DNA of 64,000 bases from Rhodohalobacter sp. 614A (GTDB lineage Bacteria; Bacteroidota; Rhodothermia; Balneolales; Balneolaceae), in contig NZ_JAKEDS010000004.1 in the NCBI RefSeq assembly GCF_021462415.1, forward strand, positions 62,001 to 126,000, given 5' to 3'. Below the pieces are notes generated by a model. The model searched no databases, had not been told where the DNA came from, and worked only from the letters and a program-made list of their open reading frames with translations. Of this stretch, positions 12,669-19,815 are shown one piece after another. Made by a program: the position numbers and the translations under genes. Every line of letters begins with the position of its first letter. The stretch's first letter is position 1.

Positions 12669-15185
12669 TCAATCGTGTATCATCTGTTTGTCTTCCAAAA
12701 CCTGAACTATTGATGGCAAAAGAATAAGAGCTGCCAAGAGTGTCATGCCAATTCCAACGACGGCCATCACCCCAATGGATTGTAATCCCGGATGATTGGT
12801 AAACAGCAGACCGGCAAAACCCATCATGGTTGTCAGTGAACCAATGGTTATGTGCTGTCCCGTACTTGACAGAACTTCCCACATATTCTTCTTGCCTTCG
12901 TCACGAAAACGGTGTGCAAGGTGTACACCATTATCACACCCAATACCAAGAATAGCCGGCAAAACTACAAGATTGTAGAAATTAAATTTGAGGCCAAATA
13001 CCAACAAAATTCCAAAGAGCCAAAGCAACCCAATCAGAAGTGGAATGAGTGCAATCAGCGTCCAGCGGAAGCTCCGGAAGGATATGAAAATGAGTATAAA
13101 CACCACAATAAATGTTGCCGTAACCATGTAGGGACTCTCCTTTCGCATCAGGTCGAGCATGGTGGCTGCTACAATGGATGTACTCGCCGAATGGTATACT
13201 TTTCCATCATCGAGAGTTATGTTGCCAATTTCTTCCTTGAACGCAATGGACCTCAACCCGTCAGATAATCCCGATTTGGGATACACAATGACAAAACGGC
13301 CGATCTCGCCATCTTTCGTCATAAACCGGTTTTTTAAATATTCCGGTATGCGATTATCCTCAAGGGGTTCCGTGGTTTGCGAACCTCTTCGAAGAATATC
13401 CAGGTTTTCACTTTCCTGGCCTACTATAAAATCGTTTTGAAGCAGTTGCCGAATTCTTGAAATGTGTTCAAGCTTCTCATTTGCTCTCTCTTCAGTTGGG
13501 GGAAACCGCTCCTGAAGTGCTTCAGCGTCATCAATTAGAGTATTGGGATTTGTATTCATTTTCTCCCGTACCTTATCAAGTACTTTGAAAACATCCTCCG
13601 TATTATCGGCCACAATGTAAGCGGGATTTCTGCGGGTATTACTGTCGGCCCCTTGAATAAAATCCCTGAACTCCTCATACTCTTCGAACTCCGGTTCTAG
13701 CTCACCGAAATCATATTCAAACCGAAGATTTCCAACGAAAAGAAGTACAACTACCGACACTAAAACACCCGTGCCTACAATAAGTTTTGAAAAAGGAAAT
13801 CGCCTGATTGCAGGTTCTGTTGAAACTTCTTCGGATCTCTTAATTAACAATATCCAGTTCCAGCGGTCGAATATTACGATGAGAGACGGTAAGACATACA
13901 ACATACAGAAAAGTGCCAGAATGATACCCAGGCCCGCTATAAATCCAAATTCAGAGAAACCTCTGAAATCTGCTACAAGAAGTATGAACAAGGCTGAAGC
14001 TGTAGTAACGGCACTTACCAAAATTGCCGTTCCCGTTTTTTGGTAGGATGAGATGATACTCTTCTCAATGGATTCGCCTGTTGAGCGGATTTCAATATAA
14101 CGGGCGTAATAATGGATCCCGTAATCAATCCCCAATCCAAAAAGAATGACGAATAAGACAGAGGTCATTGTATTTAAAACACCCAGTACCAAATAAACAA
14201 TGCCAAAGGTCCATGCTAAACTGATTAAAAGCGGCAGGCCAATAATGAGAATAGGAACCGGCAACCGGATAATGTGCTGAAAAATACCGTACTGCTGATC
14301 GCTGTCTACTCCCCTTCGGTAGTTGAAATATTTCTTGATACCAAAGTAGAGCATCACCAAAAGAATGACACTGGAAATTCCAAGAGAAAAGCTATTGTAA
14401 ACGTCATTCATAATCGATTCAAATTCGTTTAAATGACGCTTTAGCCGTCCCCCGAATTGTACTTCCATTTCGGGGTGATAAGAAGCCGGGTTCATGGAAT
14501 CAATCAGGTCCTGGTACTCTTCAAACATATCTTCCAGGTAACGAATATCATTTTGCGAACCGGCAGGATATAGCGAAAGCAAAACAAGAGTACTGTCGAC
14601 ATTGACAGGATATTCAGAAGGAATCAAACTATCGTAGCTCTCTCTGAAATCATCTATCTCTTCAGAGCCTTCATCAGTTTCCTCCTCATCTTCAAAGTCA
14701 TCCGTAAAATCTATAAAAAACGGGTTTGCTTCCTCCCTTGCCTTATCAATTTCCTGCTGTAAAAAATCTTCGATCTGTTGAAGTTCCGGGATTGTGGCAA
14801 GATAAAGGGCATTGTCTTTTAGAACATCCGTTTCCCGTTTTAGCTCTGCCCTGTTAAAATAGTTAATGTTTAATCTTGAATTGTGCAACTGAAGGCTGCT
14901 GTCCATCAGGGCATTTGCAAATTCCAGGTTTGCCTCAAAACTCGGTGATTTTATCCCGACTTTCATTTCAGTTTCGCCACCAGCTATTTCCTGCAGATGC
15001 TCAAGTGCTTGAACATTCGGGTGAGAATCCGGAAGAAGATTGGCAATATCTGTATCAATTTTCAATTGAAGGGCGTATATCCCTCCCAAAACAGCAAGCC
15101 CGATTGATATGATAAGTACCCAAAATGGATGACGGGTATTAAACTCAACAAGGGGTTGTAAAAATCGTATTAGTTTCTGCATCAA
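12669..15185 (-). CDS. RND/MMPL family exporter
   Basis: An 838-residue membrane protein with the internal two-fold repeat of RND transporters. One membrane helix near the N-terminus (PFWVLIISIGLAVLGGIYAL) is followed by a large periplasmic loop (40-245). Five helices (about 250-440) include a GLGIDYGIHYYARY core. A second helix near 465 precedes another periplasmic loop, and a last cluster carries GIGCDNGVHLAHRF and a MMGFAGLLF helix. The conserved acidic residues in the two GxG(D/C)D helices are proton-relay candidates. The length and single-subunit layout fit the MMPL/hopanoid-lipid exporter group, not the three-part drug pumps. No fusion-protein gene is adjacent. Substrate unknown, probably a lipid or envelope component. 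Confidence 0.88.
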   Translation of the reverse strand: MMQKLIRFLQPLVEFNTRHPFWVLIISIGLAVLGGIYALQLKIDTDIANLLPDSHPNVQALEHLQEIAGGETEMKVGIKSPSFEANLEFANALMDSSLQLHNSRLNINYFNRAELKRETDVLKDNALYLATIPELQQIEDFLQQEIDKAREEANPFFIDFTDDFEDEEETDEGSEEIDDFRESYDSLIPSEYPVNVDSTLVLLSLYPAGSQNDIRYLEDMFEEYQDLIDSMNPASYHPEMEVQFGGRLKRHLNEFESIMNDVYNSFSLGISSVILLVMLYFGIKKYFNYRRGVDSDQQYGIFQHIIRLPVPILIIGLPLLISLAWTFGIVYLVLGVLNTMTSVLFVILFGLGIDYGIHYYARYIEIRSTGESIEKSIISSYQKTGTAILVSAVTTASALFILLVADFRGFSEFGFIAGLGIILALFCMLYVLPSLIVIFDRWNWILLIKRSEEVSTEPAIRRFPFSKLIVGTGVLVSVVVLLFVGNLRFEYDFGELEPEFEEYEEFRDFIQGADSNTRRNPAYIVADNTEDVFKVLDKVREKMNTNPNTLIDDAEALQERFPPTEERANEKLEHISRIRQLLQNDFIVGQESENLDILRRGSQTTEPLEDNRIPEYLKNRFMTKDGEIGRFVIVYPKSGLSDGLRSIAFKEEIGNITLDDGKVYHSASTSIVAATMLDLMRKESPYMVTATFIVVFILIFISFRSFRWTLIALIPLLIGLLWLFGILLVFGLKFNFYNLVVLPAILGIGCDNGVHLAHRFRDEGKKNMWEVLSSTGQHITIGSLTTMMGFAGLLFTNHPGLQSIGVMAVVGIGMTLLAALILLPSIVQVLEDKQMIHD

Positions 15186-15372: not shown

Positions 15373-15873
15373 ATGACAAAGTCTCACTCAAGAAGAGCCA
15401 TGAAAATTATCGGCATTATACTTCTTTGTTACGGAGTTCTTGTCGCTTCTCACAAAGGTGAATTTTGGCCCTTCAGTATTTATCCAATGTTTTCAAAAGC
15501 CGGAAATCCCTGGACAAGGGCAATCGTGCTGGATGTAACAAATACTCCTGATGATGAAATCTGGGAACCGAGTACTCTCTCCGACTTATCTGTTGAACCC
15601 ATTGCTATTGGAAGCTATGGAGTTGACCAGATCGATTTTTCAAATTTCATCTCAAAAACTGAAAATTGGACAGAAAGCCGCCGAAATGCGCTCCGCACAA
15701 TGTTTGGGCCCGGTAATATTGGTTCTGAACGATGGATGACAGCTAAAGTAAATGGCAGATTGGTTGGGGCAGATTCAGTTGTGGTTGTTATTCAACCTTT
15801 TCTTTTGGTTACTGCAGATTCCGTTTATGTAAATCCACGGCTTGAAGAATCAGATTATTTTAGAGGTGAGTAG
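15373..15873 (+). CDS. Small WP-motif membrane-anchored protein, partner of the HTTM-like protein (pair 1)
   Basis: 166 residues; a start at the internal ATG (15400) is equally possible. One membrane helix near the N-terminus (IIGIILLCYGVLVASHKG) is followed at once by EFWPFSIYPMFSKAG, and the rest is soluble and beta-rich, so it should hang outside the inner membrane. The gene 2 kb away at 17897-18379 has the same plan with EPWPAFVFPGFKN after its helix. Both are coupled to a multi-helix membrane protein. Motifs of the WPFxxYPMF kind occur in small proteins next to HTTM genes in other bacteria (from memory of the family, not searched). No enzyme motif is visible. Function unknown. Confidence 0.6.
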   Translation: MTKSHSRRAMKIIGIILLCYGVLVASHKGEFWPFSIYPMFSKAGNPWTRAIVLDVTNTPDDEIWEPSTLSDLSVEPIAIGSYGVDQIDFSNFISKTENWTESRRNALRTMFGPGNIGSERWMTAKVNGRLVGADSVVVVIQPFLLVTADSVYVNPRLEESDYFRGE

Positions 15874-15874
15874 T

Positions 15875-16765
15875 ATGAAATGGTATGAAAAAATTGCAGA
15901 TCAACTATTTGAACCCAATCGAAGTGTTTCTCCCGGGGAACTTTGGTTCTTCAAATTTTTTGAACTCTTTATCGTCTCGTATGTAATTAAATATGCCTGG
16001 GAATGGGGCTTTTATGCACAACTACGCAATTTCGAAGTTGTACTGCCCCTGGGGCTTGCCAACTATATCGATGTTTCGCTTTTCTTTCAAAATCAGCTTG
16101 CACTTGTTGTTGCCGGTTTGATAACCGTATTTGCCGTTCTGGCTTTCTTTCGCCTCGGTACAAAATGGATGTACCCCCTCGTGATGTTCCTTCTGCACAT
16201 GCAATATGTGATCCGTTTTTCTCAGGGAGAAATCCCCCACAGTTCAAACCTGATCGGGATGGCCGTTTTCTGTTTTACAATCGGCGCTATTTTCTTTCCC
16301 GGCAAAAAGCAGATGCCCCGATTTGTTATGGGATCCATTATTTTCTTTGTAGGCTTGGGATATACATCCTCATTTATAGCCAAAATGATAGGCACCGGCA
16401 TCCATTGGTTTGACGGCCGACATCTTTGGCTATGGATTAGCGAAAAAAGCATTGATATTCTTTCCAGGGAAGGAGTGTACAGCCCGAATTTTCTACAACA
16501 AATGGCTCTAAAAAGTACGGCCATAGCTTCTGTGATCCTGCTCTTCGGCTGGTTCACCGAAATGATTGGAGTAACCTTGTGGTGGAAAAAACTTCGTCCG
16601 TATACCGTCACACTTATCATCGGGATGCATCTGGGGATTACAATGACCATGAACATCCGGTTTGATGCATTCGTCATTCAATTGATTTTAATCGGCTATC
16701 CCTGGTATAAATTGCTCGACTCTGTTATCAAAACAACACCAGACTGGATCGAACGAACCATTTGA
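15875..16765 (+). CDS. HTTM-like integral membrane protein (pair 1)
   Basis: Starts at the ATG one base after the stop of the small partner gene (TAGTATG); an upstream TTG in the same frame is not needed. The 296 residues hold about seven membrane helices. The spacing of helices and the patterns GELWFFKFFELFIVSY, KMIGTGIHWFDGRHLWLWI and LFGWFTEMIGV..MHLGI resemble the HTTM/vitamin K-dependent carboxylase-like superfamily, without a carboxylase-specific Cys pair or His-rich active site that I can recognise. The direct coupling to a membrane-anchored protein implies a complex. It converges on pair 2 with a 16 bp gap. Confidence 0.6.
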   Translation: MKWYEKIADQLFEPNRSVSPGELWFFKFFELFIVSYVIKYAWEWGFYAQLRNFEVVLPLGLANYIDVSLFFQNQLALVVAGLITVFAVLAFFRLGTKWMYPLVMFLLHMQYVIRFSQGEIPHSSNLIGMAVFCFTIGAIFFPGKKQMPRFVMGSIIFFVGLGYTSSFIAKMIGTGIHWFDGRHLWLWISEKSIDILSREGVYSPNFLQQMALKSTAIASVILLFGWFTEMIGVTLWWKKLRPYTVTLIIGMHLGITMTMNIRFDAFVIQLILIGYPWYKLLDSVIKTTPDWIERTI

Positions 16766-16781
16766 TGACTGTTTGAAAAGT

Positions 16782-17897
16782 TCAGGGGCTATTCTTTCTT
16801 CTAAATAGAGATTTGATGCAAATATAGAGTACAACCAAAACAGCAAAGAAGAGGAAAATGGATTCATGAAGCATCAGGTCAGATTCTACAAGAAAAAATT
16901 TCTGAACGCTGATCCATTTCAGAATGGAGAAAAGAATTAAAATCGGAATAATAAACCAGGTTACCGATTTGTTTCTGGCTCTTTTTTCATCATATCCTGC
17001 CCAATTTTGAAAAATGGATTTGTTGGACTTATAAATTTGATCCCAATTTAAAAATGCTGCATAGGCCAAGAAATTTGGTAAAAATGAAATGTTTAGAAGC
17101 ATCTTGGTCGAGAAGTGGAAGAGCACTGCAATAACAAGAAAAAACCTAAACCATTTCGATTTACGAATAGAAATCAAAAAACCAATTTCAAAAATAATGG
17201 TAATCCAGTCCAGAAATTCCCAAAAAATCTGGCTGTTTATCTGAATTGCATACCCGGCTAAATAGGCTTCCCGTTCATGGACAAAAAATTGGTTAAACAA
17301 ATGAGCTTTCACAGCATGCGTGGATGGATCCAGCCAGCCTCCCAAAATCTTTGGCCAGCCTGAAGTAAACATCATAAACCCTATAAAAATAGATAACAGT
17401 ACAAGGGGCCAGCTCTCAACAGGTCTCTCGGTTTTAATTTCCGGTGGCTTCATGGAATCGATAGAAAAACGATTCCCCCAATTTGTAAATGCCATCAAAA
17501 TGGGACCCAATGGCACCAATACCTCATGATTGACCTTTCCAATGCTATAAATCAAACCTTGCAAAACGAGTATAAAAATCCCCGATGAAATAGACGCCCA
17601 TTTTGTCTGATACCCTACGAGCATTGCAAATACGGAAAGCAGAGCAAGGCCATATAAAACCTGAAAGATGATAAATGAGGGAAATCCATCAAACAACATC
17701 ATGGGGCCCGGCGGGGGATTATAAAAATCGGCCGGTAAAGAGGCCAGGTATTGGTAATGATCGAATCCCATTCCGGGAATCAAAAAAAACAGAATAAACA
17801 GAGAAGCAATGATTCGGTACAACCCGAGTCCCTCAGCAGACACCGTATACGTCTCAAATATCCAGCGTTCAAACGGTTTTAAATCTTTCTCTTTCAT
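16782..17897 (-). CDS. HTTM domain membrane protein (pair 2)
   Basis: 371 residues, about nine membrane helices. The N-terminus ERWIFETYTVSAEGLGLYRIIASLFILFFLIPG and the following PADFYNPPPGPMMLFDGFPS are close to the HTTM family (vitamin K carboxylase-related; the segment ISLGYRTKWA/GYQTKWASI is typical). KILGGWLDPSTHAVKAHLFNQFF and LVIAVLFHFSTKMLLNISFLPN give the conserved W-D and H positions. It begins inside the stop codon of its partner (TAATG, 1 bp overlap), so they are made together. Substrate and reaction are unknown. Pair 1 and pair 2 share organisation but are clearly diverged, so this is an old duplication or two separate arrivals. Confidence 0.7.
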   Translation of the reverse strand: MKEKDLKPFERWIFETYTVSAEGLGLYRIIASLFILFFLIPGMGFDHYQYLASLPADFYNPPPGPMMLFDGFPSFIIFQVLYGLALLSVFAMLVGYQTKWASISSGIFILVLQGLIYSIGKVNHEVLVPLGPILMAFTNWGNRFSIDSMKPPEIKTERPVESWPLVLLSIFIGFMMFTSGWPKILGGWLDPSTHAVKAHLFNQFFVHEREAYLAGYAIQINSQIFWEFLDWITIIFEIGFLISIRKSKWFRFFLVIAVLFHFSTKMLLNISFLPNFLAYAAFLNWDQIYKSNKSIFQNWAGYDEKRARNKSVTWFIIPILILFSILKWISVQKFFLVESDLMLHESIFLFFAVLVVLYICIKSLFRRKNSP

Positions 17898-18379
17898 TAT
17901 TTAGTAAAATCAATCACTCCGATCAGTTCCCGCTTCGTTGAGTCTGCCACCAAATTATCTCCCCCCGACTCCAGGAAATCAACGCTATGTACGATCTCCA
18001 TACGGCCTACATCCTGTCCGGCAACTTTTTTGCTGTTCTCATAAAAAAACTCCTTTGCCCGGGGCGAGAACTCTTCCAATTCTTTTTGAGCAGGAAATAA
18101 TGAACGCATCAATCCCGCAATTTGAGAACGAGGCAGTTCCGGGAAAAAACGGTATGGCTGTATACTTGTAATCTTTTCTCCCTGAGGATTATAAAACTCA
18201 AATCGAGTTTCCCGGATAAGATAATGATCCTGAATTTGATAGACATTTTTGAACCCCGGGAACACAAACGCCGGCCAGGGCTCTGCTTTGTAATATCCTA
18301 AAATGCCAACCAGAATGTATTGGAGAGGAAGAAAAATAAGGATGACTATAAAAATCTTTCGGACAGTCTTTTCACTCAT
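17897..18379 (-). CDS. Small WP-motif membrane-anchored protein (pair 2)
   Basis: 160 residues with one N-terminal helix (IFIVILIFLPLQYILVGILGYY) followed by KAEPWPAFVFPGFKNVY, the counterpart of EFWPFSIYPMF in pair 1. The rest (IRETRFEFYNPQGEKITSIQPYRFFPELPRSQIAGLMRSLFP...) is soluble and should lie outside the inner membrane. The two proteins align only at this helix-plus-motif block by eye. It is the first gene of its pair and overlaps the HTTM gene by 1 bp. No known enzyme motif is seen. Possibly a substrate, a chaperone or a subunit of the HTTM protein. Confidence 0.6.
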   Translation of the reverse strand: MSEKTVRKIFIVILIFLPLQYILVGILGYYKAEPWPAFVFPGFKNVYQIQDHYLIRETRFEFYNPQGEKITSIQPYRFFPELPRSQIAGLMRSLFPAQKELEEFSPRAKEFFYENSKKVAGQDVGRMEIVHSVDFLESGGDNLVADSTKRELIGVIDFTK

Positions 18380-18708: not shown

Positions 18709-19815
18709 ATGAAAAAAGTACTGCATTACAAGACAAATTTTCTGAACAAATCAGAGACTTTTATTGACCGCCTTGTCCAAAATCACCTTTCCTACCAGCC
18801 TATTGCCCTTTGTTATCGAAAAAGAGCCTTTACGGATAACATACGTGTCTTTGAGGTTCCCCAAAAAGGATTGGCATCGTGGATTAATTTTGCAGCTTTT
18901 CACAGTAATATGACGCTTCCTTTTTACAACCAGGTTTTAAGACAAGAAAAACCCGATCTGGTTCATGCACATTTTGGATACGATGCTGTGAAACTTATTA
19001 AAGCTACTCAAAAGTCTGGAATTCCACTCCTCACCAGTTTTTATGGCACAGACGTTTCAAGGTTACCATCCGAATTTGGGTGGAAACGGCGTTATCGAAA
19101 GCTTGCCGCCAATGCCGCACATTTTATCGCTGCCAGCGAATTCATGAAAAATCAGTTAATAAAACTTGGATTTCCTGAGGAGAAAATTTCGATTGTAAGG
19201 TTTGGTGTGGATTTAAATGGGGCAAATTTTAATGAATCCCTCCCTTCAACCCCCAAGGTTATGATGGTGGGACGAATGGTAGAAAAAAAAGGATTTGAAT
19301 ACGGAATACAGGCCATATCCAATCTTAGGGAAAAGGGTATAAAACCTATTGTTAATATCTACGGATATGGCCCCGGCATGAAGGGGCTGAAGGATCTCAC
19401 AAAAAAATCAGGTCTTTTGGAGCAGGTTCATTTTCATGGATATCAACCCGTGGAAAGAATTCTTGAGGCTCACCATCAGCACAGCCTGTTACTGGCGCCA
19501 AGCATAACGGCAAAAGACGGTGACATGGAAGGATTGCCGAACACGATCCTGGAAGCAATGGCACAAGGCACACCGGTTGTTACCACAAGACACGCGGCCA
19601 TTCCCGAAGTGATAGAAGACAAAAAAACCGGCTTTCTCGTAAATGAAAGAGATGCGGACGGCCTTGCAGATATCATGGAAAAAATCTTTCGGAATGAATT
19701 CGACCTCAACCAGATTCGCCATAAAGCCAGGAAAACAATTGAAGAAGCATATAGTATTCAACAAATGGTTCGGAACGTTGAAGCCATTTATGATAAAATA
19801 AACATCAATGATTGA
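18709..19815 (+). CDS. Family 4 glycosyltransferase (WcaL/colanic-acid type)
   Basis: 368 residues with the two Rossmann halves of GT4. The N-terminal half (VLHYKTNFLNKSETFIDRLV, HAHFGYDAVK, LLTSFYGTDVSRL) is typical of WcaL-like enzymes. The C-terminal half carries MVGRMVEKKGFEYGI, YGYGPGMKGL, the donor-binding E in KDGDMEGLPNTILEAMAQGTPVVTT and an end helix. The EGLPNTILEAMA motif is the donor nucleotide-sugar site. It probably adds a sugar to a lipid-linked surface polysaccharide. It ends 11 bp inside the convergent methyltransferase gene, so termination must be shared. Confidence 0.92.
   Translation: MKKVLHYKTNFLNKSETFIDRLVQNHLSYQPIALCYRKRAFTDNIRVFEVPQKGLASWINFAAFHSNMTLPFYNQVLRQEKPDLVHAHFGYDAVKLIKATQKSGIPLLTSFYGTDVSRLPSEFGWKRRYRKLAANAAHFIAASEFMKNQLIKLGFPEEKISIVRFGVDLNGANFNESLPSTPKVMMVGRMVEKKGFEYGIQAISNLREKGIKPIVNIYGYGPGMKGLKDLTKKSGLLEQVHFHGYQPVERILEAHHQHSLLLAPSITAKDGDMEGLPNTILEAMAQGTPVVTTRHAAIPEVIEDKKTGFLVNERDADGLADIMEKIFRNEFDLNQIRHKARKTIEEAYSIQQMVRNVEAIYDKININD

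What the first reader, a model, noticed from the sequence alone, without database searches (positions are those of the whole stretch)
15373..18379. Two convergent modules, each a small WP-motif protein coupled to an HTTM-like membrane protein
Both small proteins have one helix followed by E(F/P)WP(F/A)..(Y/F)P.F and a soluble domain, and each is translationally coupled (TAGTATG, TAATG) to a multi-helix protein of the HTTM type. The partners have diverged strongly yet kept the same order and motif. This looks like a two-component membrane system with duplicated, possibly differently tuned, versions. The reaction and target are unknown. It sits inside a polysaccharide region, so a lipid or glycan modification is worth testing.
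Basis: partly seen in the sequence, partly recalled or inferred. Interest (0 to 1): 0.65.

Follow-up and report, generated by a model that had tools for sequence, protein, structure and literature searches.

The report
Split carboxylase-like membrane enzyme pair
Four neighbouring genes encode two membrane proteins shaped like the vitamin K carboxylase of blood clotting, each with its own small helper protein carrying a conserved membrane-edge motif, in a bacterial surface-sugar gene cluster; what they modify is unknown.

Summary
smA-tmA (15373-16765, +) and smB-tmB (18379-16782, -) converge, each small gene is coupled to its membrane-protein gene, and both motifs read as described. Motif and adjacency hold in relatives: 30/30, 28/30, 75/76, 16/19 and 27/27 loci. 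An smB-like/HTTM pair also lies on a Rhodococcus plasmid.
tmB is a Pfam HTTM protein (38.5 bits, cut-off 27.7). tmA is unknown to Pfam but models as the transmembrane domain of vitamin K carboxylase, GGCX (Z 13.8). Both keep counterparts of its essential Lys218 and His160. The small proteins have no convincing Pfam match.
'Two tuned duplicates' is unlikely. The modules are distinct old families that behave as one set: in four genomes of another genus the operon is smB-[tmB::smA fused]-tmA. The model of that fusion ends smA's helix near the GGCX membrane-embedded linker, with the motif there (low local confidence).
Best reading: a split GGCX-like enzyme whose lid and substrate domain is a separate subunit, tied to surface-glycan genes. 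Chemistry and substrate are inferred.

The parts
15373..15873 (+). smA: 166-aa protein, one N-terminal membrane helix, motif, soluble domain (placed outside the cytoplasm by its positive N-terminus, by eye)
   Evidence: helix seen in the fusion model
15460..15495 (+). smA juxtamembrane motif EFWPFSIYPMFS (residues 30-41)
   Evidence: E30, W32, P33, S35, M39, F40, S41 in 91 of 91 rows of A5 (partly motif-selected); loose motif in 56 of 57 of the set found by similarity
15875..16765 (+). tmA: 296-aa multi-helix protein with the GGCX transmembrane-domain fold; K170 (16382-16384) and H122 (16238-16240) conserved
16782..17897 (-). tmB: 371-aa HTTM protein; K183 (17349-17351) matches GGCX K218, H124 (17526-17528) matches GGCX H160
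17897..18379 (-). smB: 160-aa protein, one N-terminal membrane helix (by eye; not modelled), motif, soluble domain
18251..18283 (-). smB juxtamembrane motif EPWPAFVFPGF (residues 33-43)
   Evidence: E33, P36, P41 in 38 of 38 rows of A6
12669..15185 (-). neighbour: MMPL/RND-type exporter, divergent from smA; a relative lies in 46 of 76 smA loci (47 by a looser count)
18709..19815 (+). neighbour: family-4 glycosyltransferase, divergent from smB; a relative is next to smB in 20 of 32 other smB genomes examined

Best explanation
Each module is a two-polypeptide version of a GGCX/HTTM-type membrane enzyme. The large protein (tmA or tmB) is the membrane core that holds the Lys/His active site, and in GGCX the hydroquinone pocket. 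The small protein (smA or smB) supplies in trans what GGCX carries after that core: the last membrane helix, a membrane-embedded linker (here the WPFSIYPMFS or EPWPxxxFPGF motif) that lines the active site, and a soluble domain outside the cytoplasm that would hold the substrate. Modules A and B, where both occur, work as one set (smB, tmB, smA, tmA). They most likely act at the periplasmic face on a product of the surrounding glycan export locus, by abstracting a proton next to a carboxylate, the step that starts GGCX carboxylation. Shown here: gene pairing, motif conservation, HTTM/GGCX relation of the cores, conserved Lys and His, linkage and natural fusion of the modules, glycan neighbours. 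Inferred: small protein as last helix, lid and substrate domain (model-based, low confidence at the motif itself, modelled for smA only); assembly of all four. Guessed: the reaction and substrate.
For: Cores: tmB exceeds Pfam's HTTM cut-off in whole-genome search (38.5 bits against 27.7), as does the natural fusion (43.1). The tmB profile matches GGCX-like proteins of the genus at E 4.7e-11 over 256 columns, with K183 opposite the counterpart of GGCX K218 and H124 opposite that of H160; both residues are essential in GGCX (PMC9146348, passages; PMC12589487, parts 1-2 of 3). K183, H124, W188, H261 are in 35 of 35 tmB. In tmA, K170 aligns with the same Lys and H122 with tmB H124; K170 and W178 are in 85 of 85, H122 and H252 in 84 of 85 each. 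tmA model: pLDDT 94.4, pTM 0.90; the first 15 rows of its structure comparison are all GGCX, Z 12.1-13.8, best 255 residues at 4.3 A, next unrelated 6.8. Small protein: the tmB::smA fusion model (pLDDT 79.7, pTM 0.78) matches GGCX (Foldseek E 2.8e-6; Z 15.7, 290 residues, 4.5 A). In 15 of 16 GGCX rows the aligned range passes smA's helix (365-389) and ends at model residue 394 or later; in the seven that end at 394-405 the last residue lies opposite GGCX 392-406, the linker with Y395, S398, M401, M402 beside the active site. One system: fusion in 4 of 4 genomes of one genus in which both modules were found; tandem smB-tmB-smA-tmA in L127, L131 and L161/L188; 25 of 27 smB-positive family genomes have smA, 18 of the 25 on one contig, all 18 convergent. 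Glycan link.
Against: No sequence similarity was found between the small proteins and the GGCX-like proteins' C-terminal region (E 0.21 and 0.071). The motif stretch of the fusion model (390-405) has pLDDT under 50, and the ranges give only first and last aligned residue. The fusion joins smA to tmB, yet distance correlations favour smA with tmA (r 0.94) and smB with tmB (0.93) over the cross pairs (0.71-0.76) (no control for the species tree; within the family alone the cross values rise to 0.76-0.87). Most smA-tmA genomes lack smB-tmB (31 of 56 in the family), so A can work without B; B also stands alone in several genomes. tmA has no Pfam HTTM match (0 of 85 at E 0.1) and Foldseek alone gives it only E 0.029. 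The own genome has no VKOR hit, so classic vitamin K epoxide recycling is not evident. Neighbours are partly inherited synteny, and the second smB-tmB copy of the own genome has no such glycosyltransferase beside it.
Confidence: 0.5

Rival explanations
1. Sdp-like peptide maturation: the pairs work like SdpA/SdpB of Bacillus (small protein plus HTTM protein) and process a secreted peptide whose gene is not recognised.
For: Same gene order (small gene, then HTTM gene) and build (one helix, juxtamembrane W/P/F motif, HTTM core); five Sdp operons were found in relatives for comparison; their SdpB profile matches tmB (E 1.3e-5) and tmA (7.8e-5). SdpA and SdpB are required to process SdpC (PMC6818787, passages).
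Against: SdpA is not detectably related to smA or smB (E 0.15 and 0.28); PF17418 is absent from the own genome; no toxin precursor was recognised among the annotated neighbours, which are glycan genes (no dedicated search for one was made); the five SdpB sequences have GGDQ or GGEQ where tmA and tmB keep the GGCX-type His.
Confidence: 0.2
2. True protein gamma-carboxylase: the pairs carboxylate Glu residues of an exported protein, as GGCX does, using menaquinol.
For: GGCX-type core and both essential residues kept in tmB; GGCX binds menaquinone-4 hydroquinone (PMC12589487), and a DUF3047-type gene cluster is a frequent neighbour (25 of 76 loci).
Against: DUF3047 is absent from the own genome; no VKOR hit in the own genome; tmA of the window has Pro in place of the Asn beside the His (P-H-S against N-H); no Glu-rich substrate was identified.
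Confidence: 0.12
3. Two independent, differently tuned copies of one two-component system.
For: Same gene order and similar motifs; profile-level similarity of tmA and tmB; tandem smA-tmA smA-tmA in one Polyangia contig (L154); each module also occurs without the other.
Against: tmB is nearer to GGCX than to tmA; fusions and tandem operons join A with B; in this family B is rarely seen without A (2 of 27).
Confidence: 0.13
4. Non-enzymatic membrane scaffold or transporter helper for glycan export that reuses the HTTM fold.
For: Glycan export genes (MMPL, Wzx-like flippase, Wzi-like protein, glycosyltransferases) surround it in the window or in relatives.
Against: Lys and His of the active site are invariant or nearly so, which a scaffold would not need.
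Confidence: 0.1

Closest known systems
Vitamin K-dependent gamma-glutamyl carboxylase (GGCX; PDB 9l6q, 9wfc, 9bvk, 9bux)
   Same: Fold of the membrane core, catalytic Lys and His positions, order core - last helix - linker - outer soluble domain when the fusion is read
   Different: In the window the last helix, linker and soluble domain would be a separate small gene; no detectable sequence similarity in that part; 9-19% identity in the GGCX structure alignments; no VKOR hit in this genome; substrate unknown
SdpA/SdpB pair of the Bacillus Sdp system
   Same: Small one-helix protein next to an HTTM-type protein, in the same gene order; profile similarity of the HTTM parts
   Different: Small proteins not detectably related; no SdpC-like precursor recognised; no GGCX-type His in the five SdpB compared; different neighbours
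Linaridin HTTM proteins and the grmL gene
   Same: An HTTM protein (crdG) in a peptide-modification cluster (PMC9927463, passage); grmL is indispensable for grisemycin and may encode a peptide epimerase (PMC10373908, passage). That an HTTM protein and a small protein act there as a pair is recalled, not read here
   Different: No sequence comparison was made; the window genes lie with glycan genes, not with a recognised peptide precursor
HTTM domain (Pfam PF05090)
   Same: tmB exceeds the family cut-off
   Different: tmA does not; the small partners have no convincing Pfam match

Membership tests
HTTM domain family (PF05090) | Score above Pfam's gathering cut-off (27.7 bits), tmB | tested here: met
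   38.5 bits by whole-genome search; natural fusion 43.1; but plain hmmscan of P0003 gave none at E up to 1, and 7 of 27 relatives matched at E up to 1
HTTM domain family (PF05090) | Score above the cut-off, tmA | tested here: not met
   No tmA match; 0 of 85 members at E up to 0.1
GGCX (vitamin K-dependent carboxylase) | Fold of the transmembrane core | tested here: met
   tmA Z 13.8 over 255 residues; tmB::smA fusion Z 15.7; predicted models, and tmB of the window itself was not modelled
GGCX (vitamin K-dependent carboxylase) | Catalytic Lys218 and essential His160 | tested here: met
   tmB K183 and H124 by profile alignment, 35 of 35; tmA K170 (E 4.6e-4) and H122 by way of tmB
GGCX (vitamin K-dependent carboxylase) | Propeptide-binding domain in the same chain | tested here: not met
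   Separate genes in the window; one chain only in the tmB::smA fusion of another genus
GGCX (vitamin K-dependent carboxylase) | Sequence similarity of the C-terminal part | tested here: not met
   hhalign E 0.21 and 0.071
GGCX (vitamin K-dependent carboxylase) | Vitamin K epoxide reductase to recycle the cofactor | tested here: not met
   PF07884 not found in the own genome at E up to 0.001, present in 23 of 92 family genomes
GGCX (vitamin K-dependent carboxylase) | Hydroquinone epoxidation and Glu carboxylation | not testable with these tools
   Needs biochemistry
SdpA/SdpB | Small protein belongs to SdpA (PF17418) | tested here: not met
   Absent from the own genome at E up to 10; smA/smB against SdpA E 0.15 and 0.28
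SdpA/SdpB | SdpC-type precursor gene nearby | tested here: inconclusive
   None among the six Pfam-annotated window neighbours; no dedicated search for SdpC was made
Linaridin epimerase pair | Sequence relation to GrmL/GrmH | not tested
   No sequences of these were fetched

The most novel reading that the evidence does not exclude
A four-protein, two-engine split relative of the vitamin K carboxylase, using menaquinol or plain Lys/His acid-base chemistry, that modifies carboxylated sugars of surface polysaccharides (for example uronic acid C5 epimerisation or carboxylation) at the periplasmic face, with the small proteins as exchangeable lid-and-substrate subunits. This would extend GGCX chemistry from proteins to glycans.
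Probability: 0.12. Interest if true: 0.88.

Novelty: new variant of a known kind. Interest (0 to 1): 0.6.

Why it matters
Bacterial HTTM/GGCX-type proteins are found in several settings here (own genome, relatives, Rhodococcus plasmid, Sdp operons), and in the papers seen their job outside vitamin K carboxylation is largely open. If a conserved small gene supplies the last helix and substrate domain, that gives a rule for pairing these orphans, could explain the recurring small-gene-plus-HTTM arrangement (including SdpAB), and offers natural fusions (tmB::smA) as single-chain test objects. The link to glycosyltransferase and exporter genes names a testable product class.

Tried and rejected
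Pfam and NCBIfam scans of the single proteins gave nothing useful; the Srsx hit of tmA (17 bits, cut-off 24.1) and the scattered DUF, ApoC-I, porin and similar hits are weak, hit few members each, and were rejected. PDB sequence searches with P0003 and with the A8 and A5 profiles found no credible relative.

SdpAB membership was tested with five SdpA/SdpB operons from the phylum: HTTM parts related, small parts not.

DUF3047 as substrate: frequent neighbour (25 of 76 loci), but absent from the own genome and present in relatives that lack smA (G010, G012, G013, G015), so not adopted. VKOR gave no support for classic vitamin K cycling. A scan for small conserved ORFs around the fused operon (four loci) gave only four proline- and aspartate-rich ORFs several kb away, no convincing peptide substrate. 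tmA has no match in the plasmid collection.

Two alignments for the fusion model failed because MAFFT put smA rows on tmB (A11) or split their helix (A12). After tests I used A13: 4 fusions, 8 of the 31 separate tmB rows of the first try, 73 smA rows trimmed by six residues, 85 in all. Four tmB rows of A12 (L127, L161, L177, L178) were dropped for this.

The distance-correlation test has no tree control and is weak evidence. Weak hits dropped before counts: smA in G041 and G055, smB in G028 and G066; smB hits in L179 and L180, inside long unrelated ORFs.

Literature: the eight searches in the open library listed no paper that I recognised as describing this pair; subscription papers are not held.
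Full report
WHAT IS THERE. The window holds four genes in two convergent modules. Module A on the + strand: smA (15373-15873, 166 aa) and tmA (15875-16765, 296 aa), separated by one base after the smA stop. Module B on the - strand: smB (18379-17897, 160 aa) and tmB (17897-16782, 371 aa), overlapping by one base. No single protein has a trustworthy Pfam or NCBIfam hit in hmmscan.

RELATIVES. In 92 genomes of the same GTDB family, smA has a match in 58 and smB in 29 (each with one sequence as query). After removing weak fragments (smA in G041 and G055, smB in G028 and G066) I count 56 and 27. In 296 genomes of the phylum, the smA profile matches 36 (one, G213, only a 32-residue fragment) and the smB profile 18, two of them spurious. 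Record titles are Balneolaceae, Rhodothermales or related names and unplaced Bacteroidetes, with Reichenbachiella, a KSB1 bacterium and a Polyangia bacterium among the exceptions; that scan was selected by the motif, so it cannot measure motif conservation. The window's genus is probably Rhodohalobacter (contig lengths of G043 and G068 equal those of Rhodohalobacter records; inference). On Rhodococcus plasmid pDK1 an smB-like protein (profile E 3.2e-11 over 121 of 158 positions, motif EPYPTIRMPGF) overlaps a gene annotated as HTTM, which matches tmB by tblastn at E 4e-23 though not Pfam HTTM in hmmscan; a DCC1-like gene overlaps on the other side and an O-antigen ligase gene follows after 89 bases.

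PAIRING AND MOTIF. A small gene followed by its membrane-protein gene was seen in 30 of 30, 28 of 30, 75 of 76, 16 of 19 and 27 of 27 loci of the five searches (only loci that were delivered, sets overlap in part). The misses are two weak fragments, one contig end, one truncated gene and two spurious hits. In 57 distinct smA proteins found by similarity, GE(F/Y/W)WP is in 57 and a loose form of the long motif in 56. E33, P36 and P41 of smB are in 38 of 38.

THE MEMBRANE PROTEINS ARE GGCX-TYPE. In a whole-genome search with Pfam HTTM (PF05090), tmB scores 38.5 bits and its second copy on contig C1 39.3, cut-off 27.7 (the plain hmmscan missed it). By profile comparison tmB matches the genus's own GGCX-like proteins with E 4.7e-11, SdpB with 1.3e-5 and tmA with 7.5e-6. 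tmA matches the GGCX-like proteins only weakly (4.6e-4), but its model (pLDDT 94.4) superposes on 15 GGCX chains with Z 12.1-13.8; the next unrelated chain has 6.8. Foldseek by itself ranks 13 GGCX chains first but at E 0.029 or worse. Aligning the GGCX-like protein of the own genome to human GGCX and to tmB puts tmB K183 on GGCX K218 and H124 on H160. Both are essential for GGCX (PMC9146348, passages; PMC12589487, parts 1 and 2 of 3). tmA K170 falls on the same Lys and H122 on tmB H124. Columns: K183, H124, W188, H261 in 35 of 35 tmB; K170 and W178 in 85 of 85 tmA, H122 in 84 of 85 (one Tyr), H252 in 84 of 85 (one gap).

THE SMALL PROTEIN AS THE MISSING END OF GGCX. In genomes G109, G114, G151 and G158 of one other genus, tmB and smA are one open frame (520 to 565 aa as called), in the operon smB - tmB::smA - tmA. 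In a fifth genome of that genus (G235) only a truncated smB was found. The AlphaFold2 model of one fusion (pLDDT 79.7, pTM 0.78), made without templates, matches GGCX better than anything else listed (Foldseek E 2.8e-6; Z up to 15.7, next unrelated 5.6). In 15 of 16 GGCX rows the aligned range passes the smA helix (model 365-389). Eight rows end at model residue 449 or later, in the soluble domain (three of them at 8.4-8.7 A); seven end at 394-405 opposite GGCX 392-406; one ends at 292. The tool warns that such ranges give only the first and last aligned residue. In GGCX the TMD-PBD linker, with S398, M401 and M402, is embedded in the membrane; Y395 coordinates the Glu, and M401 and M402 help separate the Glu and vitamin K pockets. 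The smA motif (model 393-404) falls there. Limits: pLDDT at 390-405 is below 50, sequence comparison gives nothing, the partner in this model is tmB, not tmA, and smB was not modelled. Two HTTM proteins of the same genus (L074, L080) show, by eye, the same build in one chain: core, further helix, then a W-x-M-F stretch and a soluble domain.

ONE SYSTEM OR TWO. Of 27 family genomes with smB, 25 have smA (Fisher p 4e-5, not corrected for kinship). In 18 of these 25 the modules share a contig within 7 kb, always convergent; in 7 they lie on different contigs. In Longimonas (L127), L131 and Roseithermus (L161, L188) they are tandem, and in the fused genus tandem and fused. Different arrangements of the same four genes argue for selected linkage. 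Against full dependence: 31 of 56 smA genomes lack smB, and B was found without A in G286, G288, G258, G291 and in the second copy of the own genome. Distance matrices over 31 genomes correlate best within pairs (smA-tmA 0.94, smB-tmB 0.93; cross pairs 0.71-0.76), which favours the pairs of the gene order; within the 24 family genomes alone the contrast is weaker (0.83 and 0.90 against 0.76-0.87).

SURROUNDINGS. The window neighbours are an MMPL exporter, family-2 and family-4 glycosyltransferases, a Wzx-like flippase and an FkbM methyltransferase. A relative of the MMPL exporter lies in 46 of 76 smA loci, a cluster with DUF3047 (by one member) in 25 of 76 (lower bounds because many loci end early). 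The family-4 glycosyltransferase next to smB in the window has a relative (41-61% identical) next to smB in 20 of 32 other smB genomes examined: divergent in 15 of the same family (27-171 bases apart), but co-directional and overlapping smB by 4-13 bases in 5 genomes of the fused genus (smB loci numbered below L088, the own second copy and two spurious hits left out). Wzi-like proteins occur near some relatives, and the Rhodococcus pair is followed by an O-antigen ligase gene.

MECHANISM. Best reading: core plus small subunit form a GGCX-like cavity at the outer face of the inner membrane; the conserved Lys starts proton transfer, probably from a quinol; the small protein closes the cavity and presents the substrate, an exported glycan, glycolipid or attached peptide. 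Steps shown: relation and fold of the cores, residues, pairing, linkage. Steps inferred: lid and substrate role, joint action of A and B. Guess: the reaction. The own genome has no VKOR hit, so an epoxide cycle like the human one is not evident, and acid-base chemistry without oxidation remains open; epimerisation has been proposed for grmL in a linaridin cluster (PMC10373908, passage), and an HTTM protein occurs in such a cluster (PMC9927463, passage).

VERDICT. Observation confirmed; interpretation half right. It is a real two-part variant of the HTTM/GGCX kind with unannotated small partners, and a linkage pattern that makes four-part action plausible and testable. The open-library searches listed under Tried and rejected showed no prior description.

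Noticed in passing
G000 C1:573724-575272 (L002, L195): Second smB-tmB copy in the own genome (tmB 46%, smB 38% identical), without smA-tmA, a few kb from ORFs that look like carA, carB and a carbonic anhydrase and from a TamB/Omp85-like pair (names by eye, not scanned).
   Followed up: partly
G000 C1:237484-238248 and C1:1237247-1238023 (L070, L079): Two full-length GGCX-like HTTM proteins in the same genome that has no VKOR hit; their substrates are unknown.
   Followed up: partly
L074 and L080 (G062, G048): HTTM proteins with a fused C-terminal helix followed by LKLDQRWNMF and a soluble domain, a one-chain version of the same architecture.
   Followed up: no
L124:4777-5652, L183:3410-4138 and others: DUF3047 gene often between the MMPL exporter gene and smA; function unknown, absent from the own genome.
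   Followed up: partly
L154 (Polyangia contig JAUICN010000006.1): Two smA-tmA modules in tandem, with a flippase-like gene, a glycosyltransferase and an MMPL gene nearby.
   Followed up: no
L255 (Rhodococcus plasmid pDK1, 79664-81494): Overlapping cassette of DCC1-like, smB-like and HTTM genes, followed 89 bases later by an O-antigen ligase gene.
   Followed up: partly
relatives of L157:9015-9989 (cluster 4): A roughly 330-aa membrane protein without a Pfam hit, resembling by eye the membrane part of lysyl-phosphatidylglycerol synthase, lies in 30 of 76 smA loci.
   Followed up: no
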